From: Lycium barbarum
Taxonomy: Eukaryota; Streptophyta; Magnoliopsida; Solanales; Solanaceae
Direction of reading: 5' to 3'
NCBI RefSeq assembly: GCF_019175385.1
Contig: NC_083346.1
Coordinates: 87,372,543 to 87,436,542, forward strand
Length of the DNA: 64,000 nt
The notes below the pieces were generated by a model. The model saw only the letters and a list, made by a program, of their open reading frames with translations. It was not told the origin of the DNA and searched no databases. The translations under genes and the position numbers were made by a program. Position 1 is the first letter of the stretch; each line of letters begins with the position of its first letter. Below are positions 5,890 through 61,573 of the stretch, piece by piece.

Positions 5890-5922
<33 letters not shown>

Positions 5923-8989: not shown

Positions 8990-8999
8990 GTACTCAGTT

Positions 9000-13807: not shown

Positions 13808-13840
<33 letters not shown>

Positions 13841-33030: not shown

Positions 33031-33037
33031 AGTTCGC

Positions 33038-35040: not shown

Positions 35041-35133
35041 GGCGATCCTTGCGTCGTTCGTGAAGTCCTATCTCTGAGGCCTCTTAGGGTTTTCTTGGGT
35101 GTTTCTCTTGGTGCAACCGAGCTCAAAAAGCGC

Positions 35134-35275
35134 CTGCGTATCCTGTCGCAGCAGGAATCAGGTCAAACGTAGTTATTAATAAAAGTAAATGAGTTTTTTC
35201 TTTTAATAATAATGTGACCAGGTCCCAAATGGACTGCCTACGTATCCCACTATGGGGTAGTTAGTCATTGCGCAG
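35134..35275 (-). repeat. Two copies of the two-hairpin module (element A)
   Basis: The first runs 35134-35172 with + ends CTGCG and CGTAG (one A-C mismatch in the RNA sense) and a strong inner stem TCCTG/CAGGA. The second runs 35238-35275 with ends CTACG and CGCAG (a G-U pair in the RNA sense), followed in sense by GTCC/GGAC. Confidence 0.7.
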
Positions 35276-35367
35276 TTCATATTACAAAAGTTGTTTTGTT
35301 TTTCCCATCTATTACAAAACGATTACAAACAAAAGGAAATAGCTAATACAAGCAAATCACATAACGA

Positions 35368-36186
35368 TTACAAGCAAAAGGTACAATTACAAATTGAGAA
35401 ACTCGTCTGTATGCATAGTAGCGCTTGATTGGCTTTGGCCACTCTTGTCCGTCCATTTCTTCCAATACTACTGCTCATCCGGAGAGTATTTTGCGGAGCA
35501 TAAGGACCTTTCCAGTTGGGAGCGAATTTCCCTTTGTTCGTCTTGATGTGGGAAAATTCTTTTGAGCACCAGCAGCCCAATTTGGAAAAGCCGAGTCCTG
35601 ACTCACTTGTTGAAGGCTCTTGCCATTCTTTGTTGATATAGTTGACCATGACATACGACAACCATCCTTTTCTCGTCAATTAAAGCTGACTGCTCATCTG
35701 CTTCTTGGATGATCCTTAAGGAGGGTATGTCGACTTTAACAGGTATAACTGCTTCAGTACCGTAGACCAGCAGATATGGAGTTACTCCTGTTAAAGTTCT
35801 AGCCGTAGTACGCTATCCCAGTAACGCATAAGGCAACTGCTTATGCAAACCTTTGTAATTTTATGTCATTTTCTTCAATATCCTCTTGATATTCTTGTTG
35901 GCTGCTACTACGACTCCGTTCATTTGTGGTCGATAGGCTGTCGAGTTTCGGTGGGTGATCTTGAATTGTTCATAGATATCCTTCTTCAGATAACTATTCA
36001 GATTTCCCCTATTATCAGTTAGGATGGACTCGGGTACGTCGAATCGGCATATGATATTGTTTCACACGAAATCGGCTACCACTTTCTTTGTTACTGACAT
36101 GTGTGATGTTACTTCCACCCATTTGGTGAAGTAGTCGATAGCTACTAAAATAAATCGAAGCCCATTTGAGGCTGCAGGTTCGATGG
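35368..36186 (-). pseudogene. Ogre element A integrase, C-terminal half
   Basis: In sense it resumes at the target site and reads ILVAIDYFTKWVEVTS, then ESILTDN with the second catalytic Asp, then TAYRPQMNG..AANKNIK (Glu region), and PYLLVYGTEAVIP. It ends with GKFAPNWKGPY, the GPY-type C-terminus (35500-35545). Stops occur (for example in FV*NN near 36060 and in the LG* segment near 35815) and the second frame is shifted, so it is inactive. It joins the N-terminal half at 46165-46516. Confidence 0.82.
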
Positions 36187-38579
36187 TGTCACGACCCAGC
36201 TAGGGGCCGCGACGGGTACCCGGGGCAATTACCGAGCACCGCTTACTCTACTGCTTGTCTCGCTCATTTAATACTCTTTTATCAATTTACATACCAATTG
36301 TAGGAAAATCATATTTAATCAAAATATACATACTTTATATACATTGCCCCTTTGGCCATCAAAATAACATACATACATATGAAAACATCTTGTGAGACCA
36401 TCTAACCCACACTGCGTATCTACGAGCCTCTACTAACATAATGAATACATACACGGAATAAGACTCCGCCATGCCCAAAATATGCATATATGAATGTACA
36501 TCAAAGGAATAGCCATAAGCACCTTCGAACAATGGAGTGCTATCTATCAGCTGACAGCTACTGAGGACCTGGGCCAAGCTCTCCTCCCTGTCTACCTGTG
36601 GGCATGAACACATCGTCCGAAGAAAGGACGTCAGTACGAATATTGTACCAAGTATGAGAGGCATACATAATGAAAGGAGACATCAATAATATGGAGATAA
36701 CATCAACATGAGACATCTGAATCTGACTGATAATCATACATGAAGTAATGCATGCTGTCTTACTCATCATCATAACATGTATGCATCATATGCAAGCTGC
36801 CCGTCCATGTCGGAACGGTGTGATAATCAATAATATTAGCCCGCGTCCAGGCCTCCCGCGTCCGGGGTACCATCTCTTGCCGCCCACTAGTGGTGTCTGC
36901 CCACGCCCGTAGGTCGTGGTGTATCCGTATCGCCGCCCGCCGAAGCGGTGTCTGCTCGACCAACTAGGCCCGGTGTGAATGCAATCATGACATGCTTAAC
37001 GTAAATACTCATAGTAATATGTTTATCATAAAATACTTATCTTATCATAATGCGTATATAAGACTCAGGATAAACTTTACTCTATCGGCGTGACGTAAGG
37101 TCGTGATCCCCCGATTACATTATGGAACCATCATGGACATTCTGCCTCACCTTGAAAGGACTAGTACATAAGGTGAGTGTAGGCAAGGAATAACATCATC
37201 ATCATTCTAGTGTCATCGTATCGTATAACTTATCTCATATAGACATTCATAAGTATAAGCTTTTAACTTCTTAGAATGTAAGAACTCATGAAAGAAATAG
37301 GGATTTAAGTTAAAAGATTCATGCCATTAGAAAGAAGTACTAGCCTCACATACCTTGGTCGTTTAGCTAAGATATCGCTCGCTTGTTCTCCGTCGATATC
37401 ACGTCGTTACCTTCATAAGAGAATCCGTATCAACATTAGTGAACTAACTACAAGAACGCATCGCTAATTCTAGGAAAAGTCGGACAACGCTTCCTTCGCT
37501 CATACCATTTTTCTCATGTTTTATATCAACTCCCAACATTCATAATATTACTCGCAGTATCATAATCGACAATCGTCATTTATGTACATTTGGCACAATC
37601 CACCATTTTCCTCCAATTTTCCCTTATTTCTACTTCTAGCTCATCCTTGAGTTTTCATGCATTTAATGCCTGTTTCATGATATAAACATCATTTATAACA
37701 TATTTGTACTCACAACACTTCAACATTCATAGTTCAATTCCACTATCATTCATTTATGGCACTATTCACTCAATAATAACCCATTTCTATGTTCTTCTAC
37801 ATTTCAAGTGTCTAAGCTTTCCAATACTTCAAACAATATGGAATAATCATGAAACTTACCTTGGAGGATGGTTGAACAATCCTTAAGTGGAAATACTTCA
37901 ATTGGCCAAAACCCTAGTTCCACCTTCTTGGGAATTTTTTGACAAAGAAGATCCTTTGATGTGTTCTTACACTTATTTTCATGAATTTAGTGGTGATGAT
38001 CTGGATATTCCCTTTGATTCTCTTGAATTCTTGTGGAGGAATTATTTGGAGAGTTCTAGAATGTTCTTGAGTTGTATGGATGAATAATGGAATGAATTGA
38101 AGTCCAAGTCCCTTTTAATAATCACAAAAACTGATCTTTAATGAATTCTTGTCGGGATGAACAGTGGTCGTAAACCACCATCTACGGACCGTATTTTGAT
38201 TTACGGTTCGTCCACTGTGGTCGTATTTAACCATTTCTAAGACAGAAAGTTTTGGCTGATGGACATGGTAGTTTACGACCTGGTTTACAGTCCATAAACC
38301 AGTTTATGGGCCATAAACTGGGTCGTATTTAACCATATTCAACATTTACAGATAGTTGAGATTTTTGACAAGCTGGGGGACGATTGCACTATACGGTCCG
38401 TAAACTACTTTACGGGCCGTATAGTGCCATATATGACCACTGGGCTGAAAATTTTTTCGCGACTTTCTTATTTCCAAAAATTCTAAATTAGCCATTCCCG
38501 ACTTAATAAAACATCATTCACTCAACTTTTCATCATTTCACTCACCATACAAGTACGGAGAAATTTCCGAGGTGTAACA
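36187..38579 (-). repeat. 3' LTR of the Tekay element
   Basis: On + it runs TGTCACGACCCAG...CCGAGGTGTAACA. It holds the palindrome cluster (38180-38426), whose inverted repeat at 38387-38426 has 18-bp arms. Short frames (36359-36963, 37704-38087) are repeated in the other LTR and have no recognisable domain. Confidence 0.93.
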
Positions 38580-38594
38580 TTCTTCCCCCCTTTT
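38580..38594 (-). promoter_or_regulatory. Polypurine tract of the Tekay element
   Basis: In sense AAAAGGGGGGAAGAA directly precedes the 3' LTR start TGTTACACC. It is the plus-strand primer tract. Confidence 0.88.
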
Positions 38595-38783
38595 GGAACA
38601 TTCGTCCTCGAATGTTCGACACTCGGGGATTCTGGAAATTTTTGCCAGAGTTTCCTTTGTAATTTGGATACTACCTTTCCATTACAACAACCCACAATAT
38701 CTTCGTCTCACAGGGCTATATCACAATATCAACACATTTATGGCCACACACGACTAAAAACATAAAACTAAAACATACATACC

Positions 38784-41700
38784 TTACACCATCGACGTCT
38801 CATCTTGAATCTCTTCTGGGGATTGGAACAAATGGGGGTACATAGATTTCATCTTCTCCTCCGCTTCCCAAGTCATTTCTTCCCGATTATTGTTCCGCCA
38901 TAGAACTTTGACTGAAGTAACCTCTTTATTCCGGAGCCTTCGTGCTTGTCTATCCAAAATGGCAATGGGCATTTCCTCGTACGTTAGCTTCTCTGGTACT
39001 TGCACATCATCAACCGAAACTATTCTTGTTGGGTCTCCAATACACTTGTGGAGCATCGAAACATGGAATACTGGATGCATGGATTCGAGCTCTGAAGGCA
39101 AGTCCAATTTATAGGCTACTCGACTCACCTTACGAACCATTTGGTAGGGTCCGATATATCTGGGACTTAGCTTTCCCTTCTTGCCAAATGTCATCACTCC
39201 CTTCATCAGCGATACCTTCAGGAACACCCAATCTCCTACTTGAAATTCCAAGTCTCGGCGGCGATTATCTGCATAAGACTTTTGGCGACTTTGAGCTGTT
39301 AACAATCGGTCTCGAATCACTTTAACCTTCTCAACTGCTTGATGGATCAAGTTGGGGCCTATCAATTGTACTTCTCCAGTTTCAAACCATCCAATTGGAG
39401 ATCTGCATTTTCTTCCATATAAGGCCTGGTATGGAGCCATTTGAATACTGGAATGATAGCTGTTATTATAGGAAAATTCAATAAGAGGCAAATGCTCATC
39501 CCAACTACCGCCAAGTTCCAATACACATGCCCGTAGCATATCCTCTAAGGTCTGAATAGTGCGCTCGGCTTGTCCGTCAGTCTGCGGATGGAACGCCGTG
39601 CTGAGCTTAACTTGGGTACCTAGACCTTCTTGAAAGGAATTCCAGAACTTGGCTGTGAACTGTGCCCCTCTGTCTGTGATAATGGCCAAAGGAATACCGT
39701 GAAGTCGTACAATCTCCTTGAGATACAATTTAGCATAATCTTCCGCTGAATATGTGGTTCTAACGGAGAGAAAATGAGCTGCTTTCGTGAGTCTATCCAT
39801 GATCACCCATATAGAATTATACTTCCCTCGCGTACGGGGTAATCCTACCACAAAATCCATGTTAATTTCTTCCCATTTCCACGTAGGAATTTCCATTGCT
39901 TGCAATAAGCCTCCTGGATTTTGATGCTCGGCCTTCACTTGCTGGCAATTTGGACACTGTGCTACAAATTCTGCTATGTCTCGCTTGATGCCATCCCACC
40001 AATATATCAATTTGAGATCGTGGTACATCTTGGTTACACCTGGATGAATAGAATACCGGGAATAATGTGCTTCCTCTAAAATCCGTTGGCGCAAGTTTGC
40101 CACATTCGGTACACATAGCCGGCCTCGATATCTAAGAACTCCTTCTATGGAAACTTCGAATGGCGACTTTTCCTTTCTATGGGATAGATCTCGATAGTGG
40201 CTTAACTGAAGATCTTCATATTGCCGGTCCTTCACTTCTAGATTCAGTGATGAAACTGTGGGGTCATGGATGGTAATACTTGCATTTCCTGAATCAATGG
40301 GCCGTACGCCGAGACTTGCTAACCGATGGACCTCACGAACCATTTCTCGCTTTTCCGAAGGAACTCCACATAAACTACCCATCGATCGGAGGCTAAGTGC
40401 ATCTGCTACTTCATTCGCCTTCCCTGGATGATATAGAATGTTCACATCATAATCCTTCTGTAATTCTAACCATCTCCTTTGCCGCAGGTTCAACTCCTTC
40501 TGTTTGAAAATATATTGAAGGCTTTTGTGATCCGTATAGATGTCCACGTGCACACCATATAAATAGTGTCTCCACATTTTCAATGCATGAATGACCGCAG
40601 CTAGCTCAAGATCATGAGTGGGATAATTCTGTTCATGTTTTCGCAACTGTCTCGAAGCATATGCAATAACTTTCCCATTCTGCATCAATACACATCCTAA
40701 TCCCACACCGGAGGCGTCACAATATACTACATAGCCATCTGATCCTTCTGGAAGTGTTAGCACTGGCGCTGAGGTCAACCTGTTTTTCAACTCTTGGAAG
40801 CTACGCTCGCAGGTATCACTCCACTGGAATTTAGCCGACTTCTGGGTTAACTTTGTCAATGGGGCTGAAATAGATGAGAAGCCCTCTACAAATCTTCTAT
40901 AATATCCTGCTAACCTAAGGAAACTACGAAATTCTGTAGGCGTCGTAGGTCTTGGCCAAGTCTTCACAGCTTCTATTTTCTGAGTGTCGACTCGGATACC
41001 ATCATCTGAAATAACATGGCCTAGAAATGCCACTGAGTTTAGCCAAAACTCGCACTTCGAAAACTTTGCATACAATTCCCAATCTCGAAGAATGCCAAGA
41101 ACAATTCTTAGATGATCTGCATGTTCTGACTCTGTGCGAGAGTACACCAAAATATCGTCGATGAACACTATCACAAAAAGGTCCAAAAATGGCCTAAACA
41201 CATTATTCATTAAATTCATGAACACTGCCGGGGCATTTGTCATCCCAAACGACATTACTCGAAACTCGTAGTGACCATATCTTGTCCTGAAGGCGGTCTT
41301 GGGAATATCTGCTTCCCTAATTCTCACCTGATGATAACCCGATCTCAGATCTATCTTGGAGAACCATTTAGCACCTTGCAATTGATCGAACAAGTCGTCA
41401 ATTCTAGGAAGGGGATATTTGTTCTTCACCGTCACTTTGTTCAGCTGTCTGTAATCAATACACATTCGTAACGAACCATCTTTCTTCCTTACGAACAAGA
41501 ATGGTGCTCCCCATGGCGAGGAACTAGGCCTTATAAACCCCTTCTCAAGTAAATATTTTAGCTGTTCTTTTAGCTTTTTCAGTTCTGCTGGAGCCATTCG
41601 ATATGGAGGAATAGAAATAGGCTCAGTGTTTGGTAATACATCAATGGCAAAGTCGATTTCCCTTTTTGGAGGAAGGCCTGGTAACTCGTCGGGAAACACA

Positions 41701-43376
41701 TCTGGGAATTCATTCACTACCGGGACAGACTGGAAAGTTGGCACTTCCGCTTCCGTGTTATGAACCCGAACTAGATAACAAATATAACCTTTGGCTATCA
41801 TCTTTCTCGCCTTAAGGTAGGAAATAAACCTACCCTTTGGGGAAACTGTATTTCCCTTCCACTCGAGTATGGGCTCTCCCGGAAATTGGAATCGAACTAC
41901 CTTTGTCCGGCAACCAACATTAGCATAGCATGATGCCAACCAGTCCATGCCCATAATTACGTCAAAATCTATCATCTCAAGTTCAATTAGATCAGCCCTT
42001 GTCTGACGATCACATATAATGACTACACAGTTCTGATATACTTGCCTCACTATTACTGGATCACCAACCGGAGTGAATACCTCGAAGGGTTTAATTGGCT
42101 CAGGTCTTACCCCAGCACAATCATCGATATACGGAGTAATATATGAGAAGGTAGAACCTGGATAAATCAGAGCATATACGTCACGGGAAAATATAGTCAA
42201 GGTACCTGTGACAACATCTGGGGAAGACTCAAGATCCTGTCGCCCAGCTAAAATATACACACGGGGCTGAACAGCACCTGAAGTGGATGCTCCCCCTCTA
42301 CCTCTGCCTCTGCCTGCTGTAGTCTGAGGAGTCTGTGCTGTCGGGCGCGCTGAAGAAGACCCCGCGGCTAAACCTGTGGGCTGAGTCCCCGCTCTATCTC
42401 TCGCTGAAGGGCAATCTCTCATCATATGACCAACCTGCCCGCAAGCATAACAAGCATCCGAACCCTGACGACACTGTCCGGAATGTAATTTTCCACACTG
42501 GCTACACCGCGGTATTGAAGGTCTCCTCTGGCTAAAGTCTCCCCTAGACTGCGAATCTGAGGCCCTCGAACTCTGCCCCTGGCCTGACTGAGTAGAACGA
42601 TCAACCCTCCTAACTGAGAATCTAGGAGGTGCACTAGTCACTGACTGAACTGAGTGCCTAGAATATGTCTGTCTCGGTCCCTCTCGGTACTCACTGCTCT
42701 CCCCCATAGATCTAGCCCTCTTACCTTGTCTTCTGTCACCCTCACGATCACTTTTCTGCTGTCGTTGGCGTTCCTCGAGGTTCTGAGCATGGGCCTGTAT
42801 CCGGGAAATATCCATCCCGTCTTGCAAAGAGGCTGTCAGGCAATCTCTGAACAAGTGTGGTCCTAAACCACTCACAAATCTATAGACTCGGTCTCCCATG
42901 TCAGCCACCATAGTCGGAGCATACCGGGCCAATGAGTTGAATTGCATACTATACTCTCGGGCACTCATGCTTCCCTGTTTCAAATTCAAGAACCCGTCCG
43001 CTCTAGCTCGGCGGACTTCAGGTGGCAAGTAGTGACGAATAAAGGCATCTACAAACTCTTGCCACACGGGAGGTGGTGCGTTCTCCCCTCTTGTTATCAC
43101 CCAATTCTTATACCATAGTACCGCCACGTCGCGGAGTCTATATGAGGCCAACTCCACGGATTCAGTCTCAGAAGCATGCATAAGTTTCAGCGTCTGCAAC
43201 ATCTCATCGATAAAACCTTGTGGGTCCTCATCCGGCTTCGACCCGAAAAGTTCTGGAGGATTTAGAGTAAGGAAATCACGGGTTCTTGTACTAGCTGAAT
43301 GATCACTTGGGCCCGCATTCGGTCGTTGTGCCTGAGCGGCAACCAACTGCGTCAATAAATGTATGGCCTCAGACAC
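38784..43376 (-). CDS. Tekay gag-pol polyprotein (1530-codon open frame)
   Basis: This is one frame with all domains in order. Gag is at about 1-290, with a CCHC knuckle at 309-322 ([14 protein letters not shown]). The protease is centred on residue 405. RT has FIDD at 738-741. RNase H has CDAS with D887. Integrase has the HHCC region (H1111) and D1174, D1235, E1271, that is 35 residues between the last two. A chromodomain-like tail is at about 1470-1520 (EEMTWE). Two flaws stand out. The protease site is LIYPGST, with Tyr405 where the family has Asp (one base change). And the natural gag start is most likely ATG at 43557-43559, from which codon 35 is TAA (43455-43457). The open frame listed starts at the later Met (43376), so the annotated N-terminus is a fallback. 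It probably makes no working protease. Confidence 0.9.
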
Positions 43377-43559
43377 TTGTTGACCCGAAGCACCCGATGG
43401 AGGAATCGGAGCTGAGGCTCCTCCCTGCTTTTCTACATTGGTCGCGGCCTCACTTTACGATTCACTTTCCTCTACATTTGCCGGAGGCTCTCTTTCCGCC
43501 TGCCTCTTTGTCGAAGCTTTGCCTTTCTGGGCAGCTGTAGCTTTTCCTTTCGGCGGCAT
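43377..43559 (-). pseudogene. N-terminal gag extension with nonsense codon
   Basis: In the same frame as the 1530-codon frame, 61 codons upstream start at ATG 43559 with MPPKGKA, a Lys/Ala-rich start usual for this family. TAA at codon 35 is the only stop. The rest of the frame is open, so a single mutation separates this from a full 1591-codon frame. Confidence 0.8.
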
Positions 43560-43750
43560 TTTCTGAAACCATAACGCACTTTTAGGAATGATATAATCCT
43601 AGACATGGCTCTATCGCATGATCTCATGAGAAGAAAGATGGTCATTTTCCTACATGCCCTGTAGCCTCTTGTTTATTAGCGTGGAGCGCAACACACCATA
43701 AACAAGACTCTACTAGACACGGCTCGTAGACACTTCCTAGGGCGAACCTG

Positions 43751-43762
43751 GCTCTGATACCA
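43751..43762 (-). promoter_or_regulatory. Primer binding site, initiator-Met tRNA
   Basis: GCTCTGATACCA on + is the complement of TGGTATCAGAGC. It sits four bases from the 5' LTR end (43767). Confidence 0.88.
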
Positions 43763-43766
43763 CTTA

Positions 43767-46159
43767 TGTCATGACCCAGCTAGGGGATGCGACGGGTACC
43801 CGGAGCAATTACCGAGCACCGCTTACTCTACTGCTTGTCTCGCTCATTTAATACTCTTTTATCAATTTACATACCAATTGTAGGAAAATCATATTTAATC
43901 AAAATATACATACTTTATATACATTGCCCCTTTGGCCATCAAAATAACATACATACATATGAACACATCTTGTGAGACCATCTAACCCACACTGCGTATC
44001 TACGAGCCTCTACTAACGTAATGAATACATAGACGGAACAAGACTCCGCCAGGCCCAAAATATGCATATATAAATGTACATCAAAGGAATAGCCATAAGC
44101 ACCTCCGAACAATGGAGTGCTATCTATCAGCTGACAGCTACTGAGGACCTGGGTCAAGCTCTCCTCCTTGTCTACCTGTGGGCATGAACACAACGTCCGA
44201 AGAAAGGACGTCAGTACGAATATTGTACCAGGTATGAGAGGCATACATAATGAAAGGAGACATCAATAATATGGAGATAACATCAACATGAGACATCTGA
44301 ATCTGACTGATAATCATACATGAAGTAATCCATGTTGTCTTACTCATCATCATAACATGTATGCATCATATACAAGCTGCCCGTCCATGTCGGAACGGTG
44401 TGATAATCAATAATATTAGCCCGCGTCCAGGCCTCCCGCGTCCGGGGTACCATCTCTTGCCGCCCACTAGTGGTGTCTGCCCACGCCCGTAGGTCGTGGT
44501 GTATCCGTATCGCCGCCCGCCGAAGCGGTGTCTGCCCGGCCAACTAGGCCCGGTGTGAATGCAATCATGACATGCTTAACGTAAATACTCATAGTAATAT
44601 GCTTATCATAAAATACTTATCTTATCATAATGCGTATATAAGACTCAAGATCAACTTTACTCTATCGGGGTGACGTAAGGTCGTGATCCCCCGATTACAT
44701 TATGGAACCATCATGGACATTCTGCCTCACCTTGAAAGGACTAGTACATAAGGTGAGTGTAGGCAAGGAATAACATCATCATCATTCTAGTGTCATCGTA
44801 TCGTATAACTTATCTCATATAGACATTCATAAGTATAAGCTTTTAACTTCTTAGAATGTAAGAACTCATGAAAGAAATAGGGATTTAAGTTAAAAGATTC
44901 ATGCCATTAGAAAGAAGTACTAGCCTCACATACCTTGGTCGTTTAGCTAAGATATCGCTCGCTTGTTCTCCGTCGATATCACGTCGTTACCTTCATAAGA
45001 GAATCCGTATCAACATTAGTGAACTAACTACAAGAATGCATCGCTAATTCTAGGAAAAGTCGGACAACGCTTCCTTCGCTCATACCATTTTTCTCATGTT
45101 TTATATCAACTCCCAACATTCATAATATTACTCGCAGTATCATAATCGACAATCGTCATTTATGTACATTTGGCAAAATCCACCATTTTCCTCCAATTTT
45201 CCCTTATTTCTACTTCTAGCTCATCCTTGAGGTTTCATGCATTTAATGCCTGTTTCATGATATAAACATCATTTATAACATATTTGTACTCACAACACTT
45301 CAACATTCATAGTTCAATTCCACTATCATTCATTTATGGCACTATTCACTCAATAATAACCCATTTCTATGTTCTTCTACATTTCAAGTGTCTAAGCTTT
45401 CCAATACTTCAAACAATATGGAATAATCATGAAACTTACCTTGGAGGATGGTTGAACAATCCTTAAGTGGAAATACTTCAATTGGCCAAAACCCTAGTTC
45501 CACCTTCTTGGGAATTTTTTGACAAAGAAGATCCTTTGATGTGTTCTTACACTTATTTTCATGAATTTAGTGGTGATGATCTGGATATTCCCTTTGATTC
45601 TCTTGAATTCTTGTGGAGGAATTATTTGGAGAGTTCTAGAATGTTCTTGAGTTGTATGGATGAATAATGGAATGAATTGAAGTCCAAGTCCCGTTTAATA
45701 ATCACAAAAACTGATCTTTAATGAATTCTTGTCGGGATGAACAGTGGTCGTAAACCACCATATACGGACCGTATTTTGATTTACGGTCCGTCCACTGTGG
45801 TCGTATTTAACCATTTCTAAGACAGAAAGTTTTGGCTGATGGACATGGTAGTTTACGACCTGGTTTACGGTCCGTAAAACAGTTTACGGGCCATAAACTG
45901 GGTCGTATTTAACCATATTCAACATTTACAGAATGTTGGGATTTTTGACAAGCTGGAGGACGATTGCACTATACGGTCCGTAAACCACTTTACGGGCCGT
46001 ATAGTGCCATATACGACCACTGGGGTGAAAATTTTTCCGCGACTTTCTTATTTCCAAAAAATCTAAATTAGCCATTCTCGACTTAATAAAACATCATCCA
46101 CTCAACTTTTCATCATTCCACTCACCATACAAGTACGGAGATATTTTTGAGGTGTAACA
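43767..46159 (-). repeat. 5' LTR of the Tekay element
   Basis: It has the same length as the 3' LTR. It keeps palindromes better: 45863-45893 has intact ttacggtccgtaaa where the other LTR shows ttacagtccataaa, the pattern expected from CpG decay. The inverted repeat is at 45967-46006. Confidence 0.93.
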
Positions 46160-46164
46160 GATGG

Positions 46165-46530
46165 GTCTAATGACATTTATGCCCCAGGCAACGAAAGGCC
46201 ATGGTGATCTCATAGCATTAAGCTCACTTGGAGAAACCTTGATTAAATCACCGTGGATCTGGCATTGATGGCATCTTTGTACATATTTGCAACAATCACT
46301 TTCCATGGTCATCCAATAAAATCCAGCTCGCACAATCTTCTTTGCTAGTACAAATACGTTCATATGGGTCCACGCGTCCCAACATGTATTTCCTCTATAA
46401 GTTTGATGGCTTCGTCGGCATCTACGCATCAAAGCAGACCTAAATCCGACTTTCGTTTGTACAACACTTCTTCGGCCTATTCCATGCCATTCTTCTGACG
46501 GTTTTCTTTTGTCCACCTCTGACTTTCTCG
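46165..46530 (-). pseudogene. Ogre element A integrase, N-terminal half
   Basis: In sense: HMNVFVLAKKIVRAGFYWM, then CCKYVQRCHQCQIHGD, the zinc-binding half with C-x2-C, then SPWPFVAWGINVI, the start of the core with its first Asp position replaced by Asn (GIN in place of the GMD seen in element B). The frame runs into the Tekay LTR at 46159. The upstream part is frameshifted. Confidence 0.8.
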
Positions 46531-47149
46531 AGATATTCCAGTTTGTCTAGGTATATTTTGATGTCATTGTACCATGGCTTGCCATCCGACTCTGCTTCTA
46601 CGTGGCAACAATGAGCATGCTCTTAGCTTATCCTCAGCGGGTTAATGTGACTGCTTTCAGGATGTTGGATCATTGACGCTATTGTGGCCAACGCATCCGC
46701 AAACTCGTTCTGAGCTCTTGGAGTATGTTGGAACTCAATATTTCTGAATTTCTTGCACAACCTTCATGCCAAGTTTACGTATGGCAAGATCTTTTCGTTT
46801 CTGGTGGCCCATTCGCCTTGTACCTGATGAATTAGTAGGTCGGAATCTCAAATGACCAACAATTCATCGATGTCTATATACTGTGCCATTCTGAGATCTA
46901 AAATGCAGGCCTCATATTCAGCCATGTTATTGGTACAACGGAACTGGAGCTTCGCGGCCATCGAGTAATGTTGCCCATTTTTTGATATTAGAACTGCTCG
47001 TATTCAGGAACCTTTGCAGTTGACTGCTCCATCAAAGATTAATTTCTAGCCTGTGTATGGTTCCACTACCTCATCTTCTATGGATGATACCCCTTCGTCT
47101 GCGAAATGAGTGCGGAGGAGTTCAAGTTCTTCATCCACAAGACTTTCGG
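46531..47149 (-). pseudogene. Ogre element A second (archaeal-type) RNase H
   Basis: In sense: CTNNMAEYEACI, then DSDLLIHQVQGEWATRNEKI, then HTPRAQNEFADALATIASM. These are the motifs of the additional RNase H that defines the Tat group. Stops lie between them (for example before DSDLL and in the linker). The same module is open in element B (about 59950-60370). Confidence 0.78.
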
Positions 47150-47470
47150 CTAGGAGGTCTGCCAAGCTTGTCCTTTAACGGCCTTTTGTGCTATGTATAC
47201 AATGTTGAATTCACTCAACAACATTTGCCATTTGGCCAACTTCCCGATGGGCATAGGCTGACGGAAGATATGCCTCAATGGATCCATCTTGGATATGAGG
47301 TGAGTGGTATAGGAAGACAAATAATGTCTCAATTTCTGGGCAACCCAAGGTAAAGCACAACATGTTTTCTCCACTATCGTATATTTTGTCTCACAGGCGG
47401 TGAACTTTTTGCTCAGGTAGTAAATGGCATGTTCCTTTTTCCCTTCTTCATCTGTTTTCCTAAGGCGCAT
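47150..47470 (-). pseudogene. Ogre element A first RNase H, C-terminal part
   Basis: The frame reads HAIYYLSKKFTACETKYT, then CCALPWVAQKLRHYLSSY, then QPMPIGKLAKWQMLLSEFN, and VKGQAW at the end. It is the second half of the first RNase H and its connection, leading to the second RNase H. It overlaps the previous frame by a shift near 47440. Confidence 0.8.
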
Positions 47471-48510
47471 CCGATGGCATTTTCAGCAACCGATAAGTAT
47501 AGCAACAGTGGACTCCCAGGCCTTGGTTGTACCAAGACTGGTGGATTGGACAGGTATCTCTTGATAGTATCAAATACCTCTTGGAACTCTTCTGTCCATT
47601 TTTTGGGAGTGGCTTTCTTCAAAAGCTTGAGGATGGGCTCCACAATGATGGTGGATTGAGCTATGAATCGTCCAATGTAATTTAACCATCCCAGGAAGCT
47701 CATGACTTCCTTCTTGGCTTGGGGAGGGGGTAATTCTTGGATTTATTTGATCTTTGTTGGGTCTTGCTCTATGCCCCTTCACTGACTATAAACCTCAGTA
47801 TATTTTCGATCGGTACCCCGAACGCACATTTAGCCGAGTTCAATTTCAAGTTGAACTTTCGGAGCCTATCGAAGAATCCTCAAATGAGTAGTATGCTCCG
47901 CATTTTCCCTTGATGTGATAATGACGTCATCCACATATACTTCAATTTCTCTATGAATCATGTCATGGAAAATGGTGGTCATGGCTCTCATGTAGGTTGC
48001 GCCGGCATTTTTAAGGCCGAAGGGCATTACTCTGTAATGGTATACTCCCCATGGAGTGATGAAGGCTATTTTCTCCGCGTCCTCTCATTCCATCAGGATT
48101 TGATGGTAACCGGTGAAACAATCCACAAATGATTGTAGCTCGTGCTTGGCATAGTTATCTATGAGTATGTGGATGTTTGGCAGCGGGAAATTTTCCTTTG
48201 GAATGGCTTTGTTGAGATCCCGGTAATTCACACAGATCCTTAGCTTTCCATTTTTTTTGTGTACCGGCACTATGTTTGCCAACCAGGTGGGGTATGAGGT
48301 TAGTTCTACGACCTCGAACTTGATTTGCTTTTCTACCTTATCCTTGATGTAGATATTTAGGTCCGACTTGAATTGTCGGGTTTTCTGTTTTACAGGAACG
48401 AAACTCATGTTGATAGGTAGCTTGTGGGGTACTACGCTGGTACTTAGCCCTGGCATGTCGACGTATGACCACGCGAAGATATCCACGTATTCCTTCAGTA
48501 GGTTTATCAA
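47413..48510 (-). pseudogene. Ogre element A reverse transcriptase
   Basis: 48510-48085 encodes FAWSYVDMPGLS, VNYRDLNKAIPKENFPLPN and VDCFTGYHQILM. After a break at about 48085, YVDDV at about 47930 carries the catalytic pair. 47703-47413 gives MSFLGWLNYIGRFIAQS and LLLYLSVAENAIGCAL. At the latter the first catalytic Asp of RNase H is replaced by Ser, as in element B, which is typical of Tat elements that rely on the second RNase H. Stops at 48090 and 47740 and shifts inactivate it. Confidence 0.82.
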
Positions 48511-50552: not shown

Positions 50553-51706
50553 TCAGTCAATCGTGTCTTGTATCTTATACTTGAAATTGATACAGTCCTC
50601 AGTACTGTGTCCTATGCCATTACAATGGTAGGCACATGCTTGGTCAGCTCGGTAGAACCAGTTCTTTAGGTCAACGACCTTTGGGGGAAGCGTTTGGATC
50701 ATCCCGACCGCGCTCAATGTTTTGAACAAATCAGTCCGTGATTCCATTAATGGAGTGAACACGAGGGTAGGATTTTCTTCGAAGTTCTGACATGGCGCAT
50801 TATAGGTATTTGGTGGTGGCTGATTTTGGTAGGTATTAGGTTGGTTATTTTGTGAAGGACGGTAAGCTGGTGGGGGGGGGGGGGTTGATAATTTGGCTGT
50901 AGAGCTTGGTAATTTGGGGGAGATAATTGGAAGGTATTTTTTGGGGTTTGGTAATTTGGCGATGGTGTTTGGAAGGTCGGCTGCACGTAATATACGGGCA
51001 CCGTATTGTAAGGAGCAGGTATGTAAGTATTTGGGGGAGTTGAAGCATCTGCTTCCATCGGGAATTCTTCCCTTGTTTTGGGTTTTAGGCTAGGAGTGTG
51101 GGATATGCCTGCCACGTCTTTCTTTTTCTTCCCTATAAACCCAATCGAGCTTGACCCAGTGGACTTTCCAGTCATGCTTATGATTCGGCCTGTTTTGAGA
51201 CCATCTTCTATAGCTTCTTCCATTTTGACTAGTTCAGAGAATGGTCTTCTGGCCATTGAAAGTATTCTGTCATAGAAATCTGTTTCTTGCGAACGGATGA
51301 ATACTGACACCAGTTCTTCCTCACCAATTGGCGGGTTTACCCGAGCAACTTCTGTTCTCCACCTACTTGTATATTCGCAGCAATTCTCAGTGGATTTCTG
51401 TTTGACCTTTTCCAAATAATACCTGTCCGGTACCGTTTTCATGTTAAAGGGAAGTCTTTCCATGAAGGCAGTAGCCATGTCTTCCCATGTAATCCAATAG
51501 TGAATGTCTTGCGCCGTGAACCATTCTGAGGCTTCCCCGCTCAAACTTAGGCTGAACAGCCTCATGATGAGCGATTGAATGTCACGGACACCGACCAATT
51601 GGTCACAATAGGCCCGTAGATGTGCTTTCGGATTGCCCATCCCATTAAATAGCTCAAAAGGTGGCCCCATGAAGCCTTCGGTTAAATCCAATTTGGATGC
51701 ATACAC
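50553..51706 (-). pseudogene. Ogre element A gag
   Basis: 51706-50747 is a 319-codon frame with a typical capsid region: FELFNGMGNPKAHLRAYCD, LSGEASEWF and SRWRTEVARVNPP. A Pro/Gln/Tyr-rich tail follows. The next frame, 50762-50553, carries CAYHCNGIGHSTEDC, a knuckle of the form C-x2-H-x4-G-H-x4-C. A 13-G run (50872-50884) lies in the tail and probably caused the shift there. Confidence 0.82.
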
Positions 51707-52032
51707 AAGTCGTCATAACTTAGGCCAATGCTTGTGTGAGTGGTTTTAATGGTTCGCTCCAGCATTGCAGTCATCTTTCGCTTGAGCCTCTCATCTTGTT
51801 TTTCCTACTCGGACTTCTATGCTTTTTCCATCTCCTCGTAGTGATCAATTTCTTGATCGGGTGAAAAAGTGCCTGGGGTGACAGGTGTGTGGAAGAAAAC
51901 AGCAGGGCGAGTTCGGTGAGCAGGGGTAGTTTTGGCGGTTGGTAGCTAGATGATGCTTGGCTGTGTAGTGATATCAGGATGGGTGTTTTGTAGTGCTGGG
52001 TAAGAGGGGATAGAGTGAGCAGTCTTGGGAAT

Positions 52033-52480: not shown

Positions 52481-52712
52481 AAATAATAACTCAAAGGAAA
52501 ACAGAGTTAGTTTCGTTAGGTAATAGAAAGATAATCGAGATATTACACGTAGTTGACAGTTTTAAAAAAAAAACACTTAGCATATAAATAATCATATGTT
52601 TGATTTAAATGCTCAATTGATCTCTTGTACCAGGTCTTAGGTACTTGGGCTTTGTTAAGTGAGCGAAATATAATATTTATAATATATAGGGACCGAGTCT
52701 TATGTAGACTGC

Positions 52713-52853
52713 CTACGTATCCCTTCGCGGGAAATCAGGCCCTTCCGTAGTTCGGTTTACATAAGACAAGACTCCCTACCTTAAACCTACCCGTGACCAG
52801 GCTCGATAGGGGCTTCCTGCGTATCCCTCCTTGGGACAATCAAGTCTGCGCAG
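52713..52853 (-). repeat. Two copies of the two-hairpin module before gag
   Basis: The first runs 52713-52750 with CTACG/CGTAG, inner TCCC/GGGA, and in sense AGTCT/AGACT after it. The second runs 52817-52853 with CTGCG/CGCAG, a paired double change, and inner TCCC/GGGA. Unlike the others these lie upstream of gag, between it and the ORF1-like region. Confidence 0.8.
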
Positions 52854-53039
52854 TTTCATTTAAAAAAAAATGAGGGGGGGGGGGGGGGGATATCCGTATT
52901 AAGTACACAAAATGGGATCCCTAAAACTACCCAAAAGATGACCTTTCTTTTGAGGTCAAAGCAGGGTTTGTCCGTTCAAACCTATCCTGACCCTAAAGGC
53001 CCTAAATCCTAATACTGAGGTGGGAGCACCAACTAAATG

Positions 53040-56237: not shown

Positions 56238-56365
56238 GTTCAAGGATGGCAAGGCCATCCTTGAGCTACGAATTTGACAAACCTAATTTTTACCGAATAA
56301 CAGAAATCACAGCCTTTTTTGCGCGATATTTCGGAAGTAGGGCCAGACCCTGGTTTCTGGGCTTC

Positions 56366-56548
56366 CTACATATCTCAGGCTAAATGAGAATTCGGGCCAC
56401 TTGTAGTTCTGACTGCATGAGGACTATGAAATGAAGAGTTTTCTTTAAACTATCCCGAGATGTCCCAAGATAATTATAGGAATATGGCCGAGCCTCGAAA
56501 CTTGAGTAGCCTACATATCCCTGGCTTTGGGAACCAGGACAATTTTAG
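56366..56548 (-). repeat. Two copies of the two-hairpin module near the 3' LTR
   Basis: The first runs 56366-56406 with CTACA/TGTAG, inner TCTCA/TGAGA (both changed in a paired way) and then GCCC/GGGT. The second, 56511-56548, keeps only CTA/TAG outside but a full inner TCCC/GGGA. Confidence 0.68.
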
Positions 56549-57829
56549 TTCGACTCGATAGCCTGAAAAGGAATATCCATTTATGTGGGAACCCATTTGG
56601 ATATTTCCGGTTGAAAATCCAAACCGGAGGCAGTTTTTGGAAAGGACTTATTAGTGCTGATGCTTGAAATGATCTCCAATCCCCGGTGTAAAAAACTTGA
56701 CTCTCGCACACAGTTTTTGACCGGTTGCCCAAGAAAAAGTTCTACGTATGCTCCGCATGTTTTGAATCTGGCTTTTGCTTCTATCTTCGGTAGCTTCTAG
56801 CTCGTTTCCAAGTGCTGAGTCCTGCGTGTTAGTCTTTTGAAAATTTTGATCTTAATGTAGTCATACCTGTGTGGCATTTTGCCATTTTGTTGACATTGTA
56901 GTCATCCTCCACTATTACATTCGCCCTTTCGCAAACTCTAGTCCGTCTTCTTTCCTTTTCTCATGTAATTGTGTGTTTTTGTATATATTTTTTGAAAAAT
57001 AATCTACTCTGGATAATAATCATGATACTTTGACCGACTCTTTTTTCATCGTCTTCAGATGTTTCCATCGTTCAATGATAACTTCTGTTGGGATCTGGGT
57101 CGGGCTATCCCACATTTCTGGGAACCTACACACCCCAGTCCAGTTGTCGTTTTCGTAAGTCAATATGTCAATCATGAAACCCATGTTTTCTCTTGCGGGG
57201 CCATTTTTGTTTCTTACGACGTCCACTACCCTCGAAAATTTGGCGTCACATCATGTTTCCATATAGCGATGACTGTTCAAATCTGGTGTCGCATGTCCCG
57301 TTATCCGCATACGGTGATCGCGGTATATCAGTTGGTCTAACATCACCTATAGTCAAAAATACCCAGATGTAGACTGCACATCAGAGTGCGGCATCATATT
57401 CCTCTGATGATGATGATTGCTAACCCCTGTGTACAGAATTACAAAATTTAGTCAGAATTTTCAAGTTAACTACTGCATATTCAAGTGCGAAGCCTTTTCT
57501 CATGACTACCACTATCCCTGAACCATGATTACTTTAACTTGAAATACACTGCAATAGCGACCGCAAATCTTGATGTAGGAATCACATTCGTATTTCAATG
57601 ATAGCGGACATCAAGCTTGAAATTATGGCTATATATATGGATGACAACTCAGCCCCTTCGGCACGTAGTCATTTAATCAATATCGTCATCTTGAGGAATG
57701 AAGCTCACCTCGGTGGCAAGACTTACACCTTCCTTTTTTTACTCCGGGGAAGAATACTCGCCCGTCGACAGGATTCACATCTTCCAAAAGGACTAGACTC
57801 GATTGTGAGTAACAACATACAATCTCGTT
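56549..57829 (-). other. Element B 3' region, non-coding
   Basis: No coding frame is convincing (short frames at 57020-57340 lack any domain). No tandem array of the kind seen in A or the + strand Ogre was noticed here; a TTC microsatellite takes that place. Confidence 0.5.
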
Positions 57830-58150: not shown

Positions 58151-58263
58151 TTTCCCCAGTTCCTTGTGGGGTTACCTTTATCTCTCTTTTTGCCAAATTA
58201 TTTATGATGTTTTCTAAGGTTTATTGTGAATTTTATTTGGAATGACTGAGCTCGGGAGAGCGC

Positions 58264-58488
58264 CTACGTATCCCGTTTCGGGAATCAGGTCGAACCGTAG
58301 TTCGGGGTAAACATATTTTAGTTTTTTGGTGAGACTGAACTCAAACGAGCACCTACGTATTCCCAATGGGAATCAGGTCATAACGTAGTTTAAAATACAT
58401 AATTTTTGATTTTTGGTTTAAAGCGACCGAGCTTGGAAAAGCACATACGTATCCCCTTATAAGTATAGGGAATCAGGTCCTTGCGTAG
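58264..58488 (-). repeat. Three tandem copies of the two-hairpin module (element B)
   Basis: Copies: 58264-58300 (CTACG/CGTAG, inner TCCCG/CGGGA, then in sense GCTC/GAGC); 58353-58388 (CTACG/CGTAG, inner ATTCCC/GGGAAT, then GCTC/GAGT); 58445-58488 (four outer pairs, inner CCCT/AGGG, then GCTT/AAGC). Each is followed by T(C/A)(A/G)GTC. Spacing is about 90 bp. Confidence 0.85.
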
Positions 58489-58604
58489 TTCGTACATAAT
58501 TTTGGATTTGGTTTTTTCTAAGAAAAAATGCAAAATTGCACGTAAAGGGAATGCAACTAAAGAAACCCTAAACTATGGAAACTCTGAATCCTTGTTACTG
58601 TCTT

Positions 58605-58859: not shown

Positions 58860-61070
58860 TTAGCCATGGCAAACAGCAATCATCCTCTTTTCATAGATAA
58901 TAGCCAGTTGCTCATATCTTTTATGGATCCACTCTGCATCGTCTAACTCAACTTCTTGTATTATCCGAAGTGACGGGATTTCTACTTCGGCTGGTATCAC
59001 TGCTTCAGTGCCATACACCAACAGGTATGGAGTGGCTCCAGTCGAAGTCTTGGCAGTAGTGTGGTATCCCAGTAATGCGAAAGGCAACTGTTCATGCCAG
59101 TCTTTGTAGTTATCAATCATTTTTCGGAGGATTTTCTTGATGTTTTTGTTGGCGGCTTCCACAGCCTCATTCATTTGTGGTCGGTATGCGGTTGAATTTC
59201 GTGAGTGATCCAGAACTGCGCACACATGTCTTTCATCAAGTGGTAATTCAGGTTGGCCCCGTTGTCTGTTATGGTTGATTCTGGGATGCCAAACCGTCAT
59301 ATGATGTTGTTGCGCACAAAGTCTGTGACCACTTTCTTTGTCATCAATGAATAAGATGTTTTCTTCCACCCACTTGGTGAAGTAGTCTATGGCGACCAAG
59401 ATGAGACGATGTTTATTTGATGTAGCTGGAGCAATTAGTCCAATGACATCCATGCCCCAAGCGGCGAATGGCCAAGGTGACGTCATAGCATTTAGTTCTG
59501 TTGGAGGGACCATTATCAAGTCACCATGAATCTGACACTTGTGGCATTTTTTGACAAATTTGCTACAGTTATTTTCCATGGTCATCCAGTAATAACCTAC
59601 TCTCAAGATTTTTTTTGCTAGCACAAACCCATTCATGTGGGGTCCGCAAGTTCCAGCATGCACTTTTTCAATCAGTTTTGTAGCTTCAAAAGAATCAACA
59701 CATCTAAGCAATCCCAAGTCTAGAGTTATTTTGTATAGGACATTCTTGTTGAGGAATAAACCATTTTCTAGCTTCCTAATAGTCCTTTTCTGATTTAAAG
59801 TGATTCTGTCGGGATATTCTCCCTTCTCCAAGAACATTTTAATGTCAACGTACCAAGGTTTTCCATCTATCTCAGCCTCTACAAAAACACAGTGGGCTGG
59901 CTGATCTCTTATTTCAATTTTGACAGGATAAATGTATCTCCTGTCAAGATGCTGAATCATGGATGCTATTGTTGCCAACGCATCGGCAAATTCATTCAGG
60001 GTTCTTGGTATATGTTTGAACTTGACCTCTAGGAAATGATCTGCCAATATTTGCACAAGTCCAACACACGGTATGATTTTTTCATTTTTGGTGGCCCACT
60101 TTCCTCGAACTTGATGGATTAGCAAATTCGAGTCGCCAATTACCTGAAGATCATTCACATCCATGTCGAGAGCTAAACGTAGACCGAAGACACAAGCTTC
60201 GTATTCAGCCATGTTGTTAGTGCATTTGAAACTTAACTTGGTTGCCACTGGATAATATTGACCTAAGTCTGAAACCAAGACGGCTCCGATCCCTGATCCT
60301 TTAAAATTGACTGCTCCATCAAAGTATACTTTCCATCCTGACTCGTCTTCACTTTTCTCGTCTTCAATTGTTATTATTTCTTCATCTGGGAAGTAAGTCC
60401 ACAAGGGCACAAAATTGTCATCTACCGGGCTTCCTGCCAGTAGATCTACCAATGCCTGCCCTTTAACTGCCTTCTGTGCGACGTACTGGATGTCGAACTC
60501 ACTTAACAACATTATGGGCATAGGCTGGTGAAACATGTACCTTAGTGGATTCGTTCTTGAGATCAGATAAGTCATGTATGCAGCCATATAATGTCTCAGC
60601 TTCTGAGATACCCAGGTTAGAGCACGACACGTCTTTTCCACCAAGGAGTATTTGGATTCGCAAGGTGTGAACTTCTTACAGATGTAATAGATGGCTCTCT
60701 CTTGCTTGCCTGTTTTGTCATTTTGTGCTAGCATGCATCCAAAAGCATTTTCTGATACCGACATGTATAGCAACAAAGGGCTTCCCGGCCTTTGTGGGAC
60801 TAAAACAGGCAGATTTGACAAGTATCTTTTAATGGTGTCAAATGATTTTTGCCAGTCCTCTGTCCATTTTGTTGGAACATCTTTCTTGAGGAGCTTGAGG
60901 ATCGATTCTATGATTATGGTGGACTGAGCGATGAAGCAACCAATGTAATTCAACCTTCCAAAAAAGCTCATAACCTCTTTCTTTGTTCTTGGCAATGGTA
61001 GCCCTTGGATTACTTTGATCTTGGTGGGTTCTAACTCAATACCACGACGAATGACTAAGAAACCTAGCAA
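58860..61070 (-). pseudogene. Element B RT end, two RNase H domains and integrase
   Basis: A 736-codon open frame. Residues 1-95: RT thumb (FFGRLNYIGCFIAQS). 95-200: first RNase H, with LLLYMSVSENAFG, Ser where the catalytic Asp should be. At about 195 (QPMPIMLLSEF) seven residues present in element A (GKLAKWQ) are missing, an in-frame 21-bp deletion. About 245-375: second, archaeal-type RNase H (VYFDGAVNFKGSG, NNMAEYEAC, GDSNLLIHQVRG, NEFADALATIA), apparently complete. About 470-520: integrase zinc region (HMNGFVLAKK, CHKCQIHGD). Then the core with GMDVIG. From about 59375 to 59215 the frame is shifted and back-shifted: the conserved ITDNGAN with the second catalytic Asp is found only in another frame, with a stop. 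Integrase is therefore dead despite the open frame. Confidence 0.88.
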
Positions 61071-61573
61071 TTTTCCAGCAGGTACTCCAAATGTGATTTT
61101 GCAGGATTCAACTTTATATCGTACTTGCGGAGTCTGTCAAAGAATCTTCTTAAATGTTCGAGGTGGTCCTCACCCACCCAGGATTTGATGACGACGTCGT
61201 CTACATACACCTCAATCTCTTTGTGCATTATATCATGAAAAACGGCAGTCATAGCCCTCATATAAGTAGCGCCGGCGTTCTTGAGTCCAAAAGGCATTAC
61301 CAGGTAATGATACACTCCCCACGGTGTGATGAATGTCGTCTTTTGAGCGTCTTCTTCCTCCATCAATATCTGATGATAGCCTGCGTAACAATCCAAAAAA
61401 AATTGTACCTCATGCTTGGCACAGTTATCAATAAGTATGTGAATATTTGGTAGTGGGAAATTATCCTTTAGGCTAGCACGGTTGAGATCACGGTAGTCCA
61501 CACAAATCCTTATTTTTAAATGTTTCCTTGGTACCAGAACTACGTTTGCCAACCATGTCGGGTATGGTGTCAC
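61064..61573 (-). pseudogene. Element B reverse transcriptase, main part
   Basis: Sense: YPTWLANVVLV, CVDYRDLNRASLKDNFPLPN, DCYAGYHQILMEEEDAQK, FGLKNAGATYMRAM and the catalytic box VYVDDVVIKS with both Asp present. It ends NPAKSHLEYLLENC at 61064 where the frame shifts into the next. The RT core itself looks intact. Confidence 0.86.

What the first reader, a model, noticed from the sequence alone, without database searches (positions are those of the whole stretch)
58250..58490. A two-hairpin module with covarying stems, 15 copies across three Ogre-type elements
Seen directly: in element sense the module is CTACG-(8-14 nt, ending CCTGAT or similar)-TTCC-loop-GGGA-TA-CGTAG-G-(stem 3)-loop-(stem 3')-T(C/T)(A/G)G(T/C)C. 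Outer stem forms: CTACG/CGTAG (10301, 10399, 10496, 10606, 52713, 58264, 58353), CTACA/TGTAG (13489, 33038, 56366), CTGCG/CGCAG (52817), with single imperfect pairs at 35134, 35238, 56511 and 58445. Inner stem forms: TCCC/GGGA, TCTCG/CGAGA, TCTCA/TGAGA, TCCTG/CAGGA, ATTCC/GGAAT, ATTCCC/GGGAAT. Stem 3 forms: AACCC/GGGTT, AGCCC/GGGTT, AGTCT/AGACT, GTCC/GGAC, ACTC/GAGT, GCTC/GAGC, GCTC/GAGT, GCTT/AAGC. Both sides of each stem change together while the unpaired CCTGA and TA stay constant. That is the signature of selection on folded RNA or ssDNA, in elements whose other UTR sequence is unalignable. Possible roles (packaging, RNA export, translation, priming) are inference. I know of no described element of this form, but cannot search.
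Basis: partly seen in the sequence, partly recalled or inferred. Interest (0 to 1): 0.9.

Follow-up and report, generated by a model that had tools for sequence, protein, structure and literature searches.

The report
Pseudoknotted RNA module in Ogre retrotransposons
Giant plant jumping genes (Ogre retrotransposons) in a goji-berry-like genome carry many copies of a small folded RNA element, probably a knotted structure, that is kept almost unchanged while its surroundings drift, including in relatives without their own copying enzyme, which suggests it is a tag the element's RNA needs in order to be multiplied.

Summary
In detail: 15 copies, all in element sense, in three Ogre/Tat-clade elements, in non-coding gaps (two upstream of gag, the rest after the last recognised ORF, the last one 101-117 nt before the 3' LTR where that was located). 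A covariance model built from two elements recovers all five copies of the third and all five of a fourth element fetched from the same genome, with nothing significant in 290 kb of other stretches. The covariation score exceeds a tree-aware null (p about 0.0005). This fourth helix has moderate, mixed support. Purifying selection is visible: between two elements the tandem modules agree at 234/235 positions, adjoining non-coding DNA at 382/419, coding DNA at 1047/1107. One carrier is a very recent gag-protease element (LTRs identical over 3,324 bp) in which no reverse transcriptase or integrase was found. Best reading: a cis-acting genomic-RNA recognition (packaging/trans-mobilisation) element; export, decay resistance and translation remain open. 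No Rfam or literature match was found.

The parts
10298..10356 (+). module copy A1 (element A, tandem array after the gag-pro ORF)
   Evidence: CM R1 E=5.9e-23; blind model R2 from B+C only E=3.8e-17
10396..10454 (+). module copy A2, identical to A1
10493..10551 (+). module copy A3
   Evidence: R2 E=2.6e-17
10603..10660 (+). module copy A4
   Evidence: R2 E=2.1e-15
13486..13553 (+). module copy A5, terminal, ends 101 nt before the 3' LTR start motif at 13655
   Evidence: R2 E=1.1e-16
33012..33078 (-). module copy in element B, 3' region, degenerate P4/P2
   Evidence: R1 E=2.8e-10 and R2 E=3.1e-12, not used in either model
35115..35175 (-). module copy B, after pol
35216..35278 (-). module copy B, after pol
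52691..52753 (-). module copy B, upstream of gag
52795..52856 (-). module copy B, upstream of gag
56341..56409 (-). module copy C, terminal, ends 117 nt before the 3' LTR start motif at 56223
56486..56551 (-). module copy C, second from the 3' end
58244..58303 (-). module copy C, tandem array after pol
58333..58391 (-). module copy C, tandem array after pol
58425..58491 (-). module copy C, tandem array after pol
8991..10097 (+). element A: frame matching the C-terminal (protease, weak G-patch) part of L015's gag-pro frame, joined directly to the 5' LTR
   Evidence: protease named from recalled motifs, no Pfam protease match
5731..8989 (+). element A 5' LTR; repeat copy 13649-16907, 99.9% identical over 3,259 bp
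50747..51712 (-). element B gag
   Evidence: Retrotrans_gag
58860..61136 (-). element C pol: RNase H, second (RVT_3) RNase H, integrase zinc domain; RT in 61064-61642
35434..48502 (-). element B pol (35434-36169 and 46165-48502), split by a nested Ty3 element 36187-46159

Best explanation
Each module is a ~58-70 nt RNA domain (one copy up to 83): an H-type pseudoknot (P1, CUACG/CGUAG type, 5 bp; P2, GRCY/GGYC type, 4 bp) with one hairpin (P3) between the P2 5' arm and the P1 3' arm, set off by conserved UGA and UA joints, and a second hairpin (P4) between the P1 3' arm and the P2 3' arm. The order P1-P2-P3-P1'-P4-P2' is that of HDV-like ribozymes. Shown: the copies, their sense orientation and placement, covariation of the nested helices, purifying selection, presence in a recently mobile element in which no RT or integrase was found. 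Probable, not proven: P2. Inferred: it works as a cis-acting tag on the genomic RNA, bound by a protein that the autonomous Ogre/Tat elements supply or recruit (Gag/NC, RT-integrase or a shared host factor), so that the RNA is collected into particles; several copies raise the avidity, and relatives without pol must keep the tag to be mobilised in trans by autonomous Ogres.
For: 15 copies in sense in 3 elements. Model built from 9 B and C copies finds 5 of 5 A copies, 5 of 5 copies of element L015 and the left-out 33038 copy at E<=3.1e-12; its best match in 29 other 10-kb stretches is E=0.11. Covariation score against a tree-aware null: all helices p~0.0005. Ranks 1, 2 and 5 of 861 ranked column pairs by APC-corrected mutual information are P1, P4 and P3 pairs. 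P2: 93% of cells paired versus at most 50% when slid; its variable pair is A-T in 7, G-C in 4, G-T in 1 of 14 distinct copies, tree-null p=0.007. Selection: A versus L015, tandem modules 234/235, adjoining non-coding 382/419 (Fisher p=8e-7), coding 1047/1107 (p=2e-4); the one module change lies in the P4 loop; in the terminal module 3 of 68 positions differ, two in loops and one next to P4 that turns A.C into A-T. L015/L037: open gag-pro frame of at least 1,095 aa (runs off the stretch), no RT/integrase match, LTRs identical over 3,324 bp. Among 30 fetched 10-kb stretches the only one with an Ogre-clade gag-pro (tblastn, E<=1e-6) is the only one with modules.
Against: No functional experiment. 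P2 is weak by several measures: best pair only rank 43 of 861, p=0.10 in a plain shuffle, percent paired not above the tree null (p=0.52), and 4 of 14 distinct copies have one mismatch in it. Ranks 3 and 4 are pairs outside the helices. Numbers of pair types do not exceed the nulls. Minimum-free-energy folds show the P1 helix in only 4 of 15 copies; several prefer a competing CCU/AGG helix. The alignment for the tree tests was made by hand to fit the helices. The terminal module alone is not more conserved than its surroundings (65/68 versus 178/186). L015's upstream neighbour stretch L037 holds no module, whereas packaging signals are often 5' (recalled). Export, RNA stability and translation predict much of the same pattern. 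Homogenisation between elements could mimic part of the conservation.
Confidence: 0.4

Rival explanations
1. RNA export element: the module recruits the mRNA export machinery so that unspliced or weakly spliced element RNA leaves the nucleus, like the constitutive/RNA transport elements of animal retroelements.
For: Most copies lie between the last recognised ORF and the 3' end (13 of 15); multiple copies; the murine musD transport element also uses a pseudoknot, and Medicago Ogre elements have functional introns (both stated in PMC12786077, passages read).
Against: No Rfam relation. The copies upstream of gag in B are not required by this reading. Export of plant LTR element RNA has not been studied directly (PMC12786077 passage).
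Confidence: 0.22
2. Decay-blocking or processing structure: tandem pseudoknots stall 5'-3' exonuclease and protect or generate a stable 3' RNA, as tandem xrRNAs do in flaviviral 3' UTRs (recalled).
For: Compact modules of ~60 nt in tandem at 89-110 nt spacing in the 3' UTR; a further copy close to the 3' end.
Against: No Rfam match; copies upstream of gag in element B would protect only the RNA 3' of them; ring-forming geometry not shown.
Confidence: 0.14
3. Translation element: internal ribosome entry or cap-independent translation enhancer.
For: Copies upstream of gag in B (52691-52856); plant viral 3' UTRs hold such enhancers (recalled).
Against: 13 of 15 copies lie after the last recognised ORF; none was found between protease and RT of B or C.
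Confidence: 0.1
4. Self-cleaving ribozyme of HDV-like connectivity.
For: Helix order P1-P2-P3-P1'-P4-P2' and a C in the P4-P2' joint of every copy.
Against: P1 5 bp, not 7; first pair C-G; no P1.1 seen; no C-N-R-A in J4/2 (HDV features recalled); no Rfam HDV match at E<=5 in the four regions scanned, which hold 11 of the 15 copies. Cleavage at several tandem sites would destroy the genomic RNA.
Confidence: 0.05
5. No function: tandem repeats of the hypervariable Ogre 3' UTR that share recent descent.
For: Ogre/Tat 3' UTRs are known for tandem repeats (PMC7004042, passages read); the four A tandem copies are near-identical.
Against: Tree-aware covariation, cross-family model and tandem modules more conserved than adjoining non-coding and coding DNA.
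Confidence: 0.05

Closest known systems
HDV-like self-cleaving ribozymes (features recalled; papers seen only as search listing)
   Same: Order and crossing of helices: pseudoknot P1/P2, hairpin P3 before P1', hairpin P4 before P2'; HDV-like ribozymes occur in retrotransposons.
   Different: 5-bp P1 opening with C-G, unpaired UGA and UA joints around P3, 1-3 nt J4/2 without C-N-R-A, no P1.1 seen, several tandem copies, LTR element. Not filed as a member.
RNA transport elements of LTR elements (IAP RTE, musD MTE: PMC12786077 passages; CTE recalled)
   Same: Structured cis RNA in LTR elements; MTE has a pseudoknot.
   Different: No Rfam match; many short copies; export function untested here.
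Tandem repeats of Ogre/Tat 3' UTRs (PMC7004042 passages)
   Same: Same elements, same region after gag-pol.
   Different: Those are described as hypervariable; this module is conserved across families and structured. Element A has such an array separately at 12098-13103.
TR-GAG type non-autonomous LTR elements (search listing only; definition recalled)
   Same: L015 keeps gag-pro and no pol was found; element A keeps part of gag-pro.
   Different: The known class is defined by coding content, not by a shared RNA module.

Membership tests
Ogre/Tat lineage of Ty3/gypsy LTR elements | second, archaeal-type RNase H between RNase H and integrase | tested here: met
   Element C: RT_RNaseH 117-204, RVT_3 272-389, Integrase_H2C2 484-536; B pol pieces align to C at 52-73%. 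Element A and L015 have no pol to test
Ogre/Tat lineage of Ty3/gypsy LTR elements | very long LTRs and tandem repeats in the 3' UTR | tested here: met
   Element A LTR match of 3,259 bp and repeats at 12098-13103; L015/L037 LTR match of 3,324 bp. For B and C no LTR pair was found in the window
Ogre/Tat lineage of Ty3/gypsy LTR elements | extra ORF upstream of gag | tested here: inconclusive
   A 137-aa frame at 53605-54018 lies upstream of the B gag; no domain
Ogre/Tat lineage of Ty3/gypsy LTR elements | spliced intron between protease and RT | not tested
   no transcript data
HDV-like ribozyme | nested double-pseudoknot helix order | tested here: inconclusive
   Order present if P2 is accepted; P2 support mixed; P1.1 not seen
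HDV-like ribozyme | J4/2 with catalytic C followed by N-R-A (recalled) | tested here: not met
   J4/2 is TC, CC or CT, in one copy a single C and in one CTC, then P2
HDV-like ribozyme | match to Rfam HDV families | tested here: not met
   no family at gathering in the window; at E<=5 seven weak matches to unrelated families, none HDV, in four regions holding 11 of 15 copies
HDV-like ribozyme | self-cleavage 5' of P1 | not testable with these tools
   needs an in vitro assay
RNA transport element (CTE/RTE/MTE) | drives export of unspliced RNA | not testable with these tools
   needs a reporter assay
RNA transport element (CTE/RTE/MTE) | match to an Rfam family of that kind | tested here: not met
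   whether each such element has an Rfam family was not checked
xrRNA | stops 5'-3' exonuclease | not testable with these tools
   no Rfam match

The most novel reading that the evidence does not exclude
The module is a catalytic, or formerly catalytic, RNA fold with the HDV connectivity but a different active site, amplified in tandem in LTR retrotransposons, where cleavage or a cleavage-dead relic trims, circularises or marks the genomic RNA: a ribozyme class so far unseen in Ty3/gypsy elements of plants (recall).
Probability: 0.05. Interest if true: 0.95.

Novelty: new variant of a known kind. Interest (0 to 1): 0.62.

Why it matters
How plant LTR retrotransposons select their own RNA, and how relatives without polymerase are mobilised, is largely unknown (recall). 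A conserved structured RNA shared by autonomous-type and pol-less Ogre elements, whose 3' UTRs are otherwise hypervariable, gives a concrete cis element to mutate, probe and pull down. It would be the first covariation-supported RNA family that I know of for the Ogre/Tat clade (recall; none among the papers listed by searches), and its probable pseudoknot has the connectivity of HDV ribozymes without their signatures. Small RNAs from it may be mis-called as microRNAs in Solanaceae (one candidate).

Tried and rejected
Genome-wide count and alignment in the window's own assembly: the genome search was 'busy' at 27 requests, so no genome-wide number is given. Relatives in IMG/VR and GTDB contigs: patterns and pol-based searches gave nothing or matches that I judged chance (of L001-L008 the model was run on L001, L007 and L008 only, the others were judged by eye). 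Plasmid and phage collections gave nothing relevant. A loose regular-expression scan was useless and its output was cut. L001 scored only E=0.62 with the model and was dropped. L038, fetched next to a partial A-like LTR in L030, gave only a weak match (E=0.032, E=1), not counted. Window 57103-57152 (E=0.28) may be a decayed copy, not counted. Hammerhead, tRNA-like and Pol III box readings were considered by eye and dropped. The competing CCU/AGG helix seen in several free-energy folds shows no compensatory changes by eye, whereas P1 does. Copy 33038 was left out of both model alignments (A2, A7) because of its long P4 loop; it was included in the hand alignment. Residues of J1/2, L3, L4 and parts of other joints were left out of the hand alignment before the tree tests (45 columns kept), and pairs closer than 4 columns in it were not ranked, which removes some P3 and P4 pairs.

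Full report
SETTING. The window is plant DNA: the pol frame of element C is 100% identical over 57% of its length to a Lycium barbarum protein, and two further L. barbarum hits lie on contigs of about the lengths of contigs C1 and C2 of the window's assembly. It holds parts of three Ogre/Tat-clade elements: A (plus strand), B and C (minus strand), with a Ty3 element with a chromodomain nested in B. C has RT, RNase H, a second RNase H (RVT_3) and an integrase zinc domain, the Tat arrangement (recalled).

OBSERVATION. Reading the 15 stated places in element sense shows the same layout: (G/A/T)AA - P1 5' arm (CTACG type) - 2-4 nt - G(G/A)C(C/T) type - TGA - P3 hairpin - TA - P1 3' arm - G(C/A/T) - P4 hairpin - 1-3 nt - GG(C/T)C type. 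A covariance model R1 from 14 copies finds exactly 15 places at E<=2.8e-10 and then drops to E=0.016. 14 of the 15 are distinct sequences.

CROSS-FAMILY TEST. A model R2 from nine of the ten copies of B and C (33038 left out) was run on A and L015, which it had not seen: it finds 5 of 5 A copies and 5 of 5 L015 copies at E<=2.1e-15 and copy 33038 at 3.1e-12. In the 29 other 10-kb stretches (290 kb) its best match is E=0.11. Of the 30 stretches fetched, only L015 has an Ogre-clade gag-pro by tblastn with five query proteins, and only L015 has modules; weak 24-32% pol matches in seven others, which also match the nested Ty3 element's polyprotein, I take as other Ty3 lineages. The sample is small and not random in the strict sense (round positions, two stretches placed beside earlier ones).

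COVARIATION. On a 45-column hand alignment (checked), simulations along a FastTree tree with each column's own number of changes (2,000 replicates) give for the covariation score p=0.0005 for all helices, 0.0035 for P1, 0.009 for P3, 0.0005 for P4 and 0.044 for P2; for percent paired 0.0005, 0.018, 0.011, 0.0015 and 0.52 in that order; the number of pair types does not exceed the null (0.23 for all helices). Double-sided changes occur in all four helices. A count on the model alignment gives 0 of 500 shuffles at the observed covariation or pairing, 187 of 500 for pair types, and 50% or less pairing for slid arms versus 89%. By APC-corrected mutual information, ranks 1, 2 and 5 of 861 ranked pairs are P1, P4 and P3 pairs; ranks 3 and 4 are not helix pairs. 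R-scape itself was not available. The hand alignment was made with the helices in mind, which favours them; the cross-family search does not use it.

FOURTH HELIX. 93% of cells pair, against at most 50% in slid registers; the one pair that varies on both sides has p=0.007 in the tree null. Against it: one mismatch each in 58264 and 58353 (C-A), 33038 (A-C) and 56511 (T-C); rank 43 of 861; p=0.10 in a plain shuffle; percent paired p=0.52. I take P2 as probable (about 0.75, a judgement). With it the helix order is P1-P2-P3-P1'-P4-P2', as in HDV-like ribozymes (recalled), but the HDV signature of J4/2 is not met and Rfam gives no HDV match. Simple folding recovers the P1 helix in only 4 of 15 copies, so the nested fold is mostly not the lowest-energy one by the standard model.

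SELECTION. Element A and its relative L015 were aligned through the tandem array: 234 of 235 module positions agree, 382 of 419 adjoining non-coding positions without gaps (115/124 between modules, 267/295 outside) and 1,047 of 1,107 positions of the upstream coding frame; Fisher p=8e-7 and 2e-4. The single module change is in the P4 loop. In the terminal module 65 of 68 agree against 178 of 186 around it, so it shows no excess on its own; two changes are in loops, one converts an A.C next to P4 into A-T.

PLACEMENT. Tandem copies follow the last recognised ORF in A, B, C and L015. A terminal copy ends 101 nt before the 3' LTR start in A (13553 to 13655) and L015 (3426 to 3324), and 117 nt before it in C (56341 to 56223). 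B has two copies upstream of gag; its 3' LTR was not located. The stretch L037, with the 5' LTR of the L015 element, has none. All 15 are in element sense (sign p=6e-5, which ignores shared descent).

A MOBILE, POL-LESS CARRIER. L015 reads as a gag-protease frame of at least 1,095 aa, open at the stretch's edge (gag domain, G-patch just below Pfam's cut-off), that stops 204 nt before the first module. C's pol finds no match in L015 or L037. Its LTRs are identical over 3,324 bp, so it moved recently. B gag matches L015 gag at 44%; A and L015 frames match B and C gag-pro pieces at 33-49%, apart from a 14-residue piece at 64%. An element without pol that keeps its modules nearly unchanged probably needs them in cis.

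MECHANISM. The shared module, otherwise dissimilar UTRs, multiple copies and retention without pol are best explained by recognition of the genomic RNA by a factor common to Ogre elements, most simply for packaging or use by a partner's pol. This step is inference. Export, exonuclease blocking and translation are ranked behind it (see rivals).

LITERATURE. Among the papers listed by searches (listings were capped in 47, 88, 103 and 104) none appears from title and abstract start to describe such a module. Passages were read of PMC7004042, PMC12786077, PMC6431247, PMC12513839, PMC4214822, PMC5036098, PMC11397162 and PMC3882208; the rest were seen as listings only. In PMC5036098 the tobacco 'novel-miR23' contains GGATATGTAGGCAGC, which fits the P3'-UA-P1'-P4 part of the module; this may be a small RNA from a tobacco relative, but a chance match is possible since short strings were searched in many papers.

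VERDICT. A real, conserved, structured RNA family of Ogre elements; architecture probably pseudoknotted; function open, with a genomic-RNA recognition role favoured.

Noticed in passing
L015:6711-9998, L037:2425-5748: Recently inserted gag-protease element in which no RT/integrase was found; LTRs identical over 3,324 bp.
   Followed up: partly
window 8989-8991: Element A's 5' LTR copy runs directly into the later part of the gag-pro frame: LTR end, PBS and gag are missing.
   Followed up: no
window 8991-10097 and L015: G-patch match just below Pfam's cut-off in the Ogre gag-pro frame; two of the 120 listed pol homologues carry PF01585 (P0015, P0077).
   Followed up: no
window 12098-13103: Tandem repeat array (shifts of about 82 bp) in the 3' UTR of element A, holding no module match.
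   Followed up: no
window 36187-46159: Nested Ty3 element with chromodomain, open 1,556-aa gag-pol frame, LTRs 98% identical.
   Followed up: no
window 57103-57152 (minus): Weak model match (E=0.28) lacking P3, perhaps a decayed module in element C's 3' region.
   Followed up: no
window 20318-20516 / 20531-20729: Perfect 199-bp direct repeat, unexplained.
   Followed up: no
window ~52871-52889 and ~55764-55850: Long G/C homopolymer tracts near the gag-upstream modules of B and downstream of C's 3' LTR start.
   Followed up: no
phage record OR849512.1: A 1,473-base 'Listeria phage' record matches the plant Ogre gag at 30%; it may be mislabelled.
   Followed up: no
protein P0044: An Ogre-type pol listed as Salmonella enterica, probably plant contamination of an assembly.
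   Followed up: no
PMC5036098, novel-miR23: Tobacco 'novel microRNA' resembling the 3' half of the module.
   Followed up: partly
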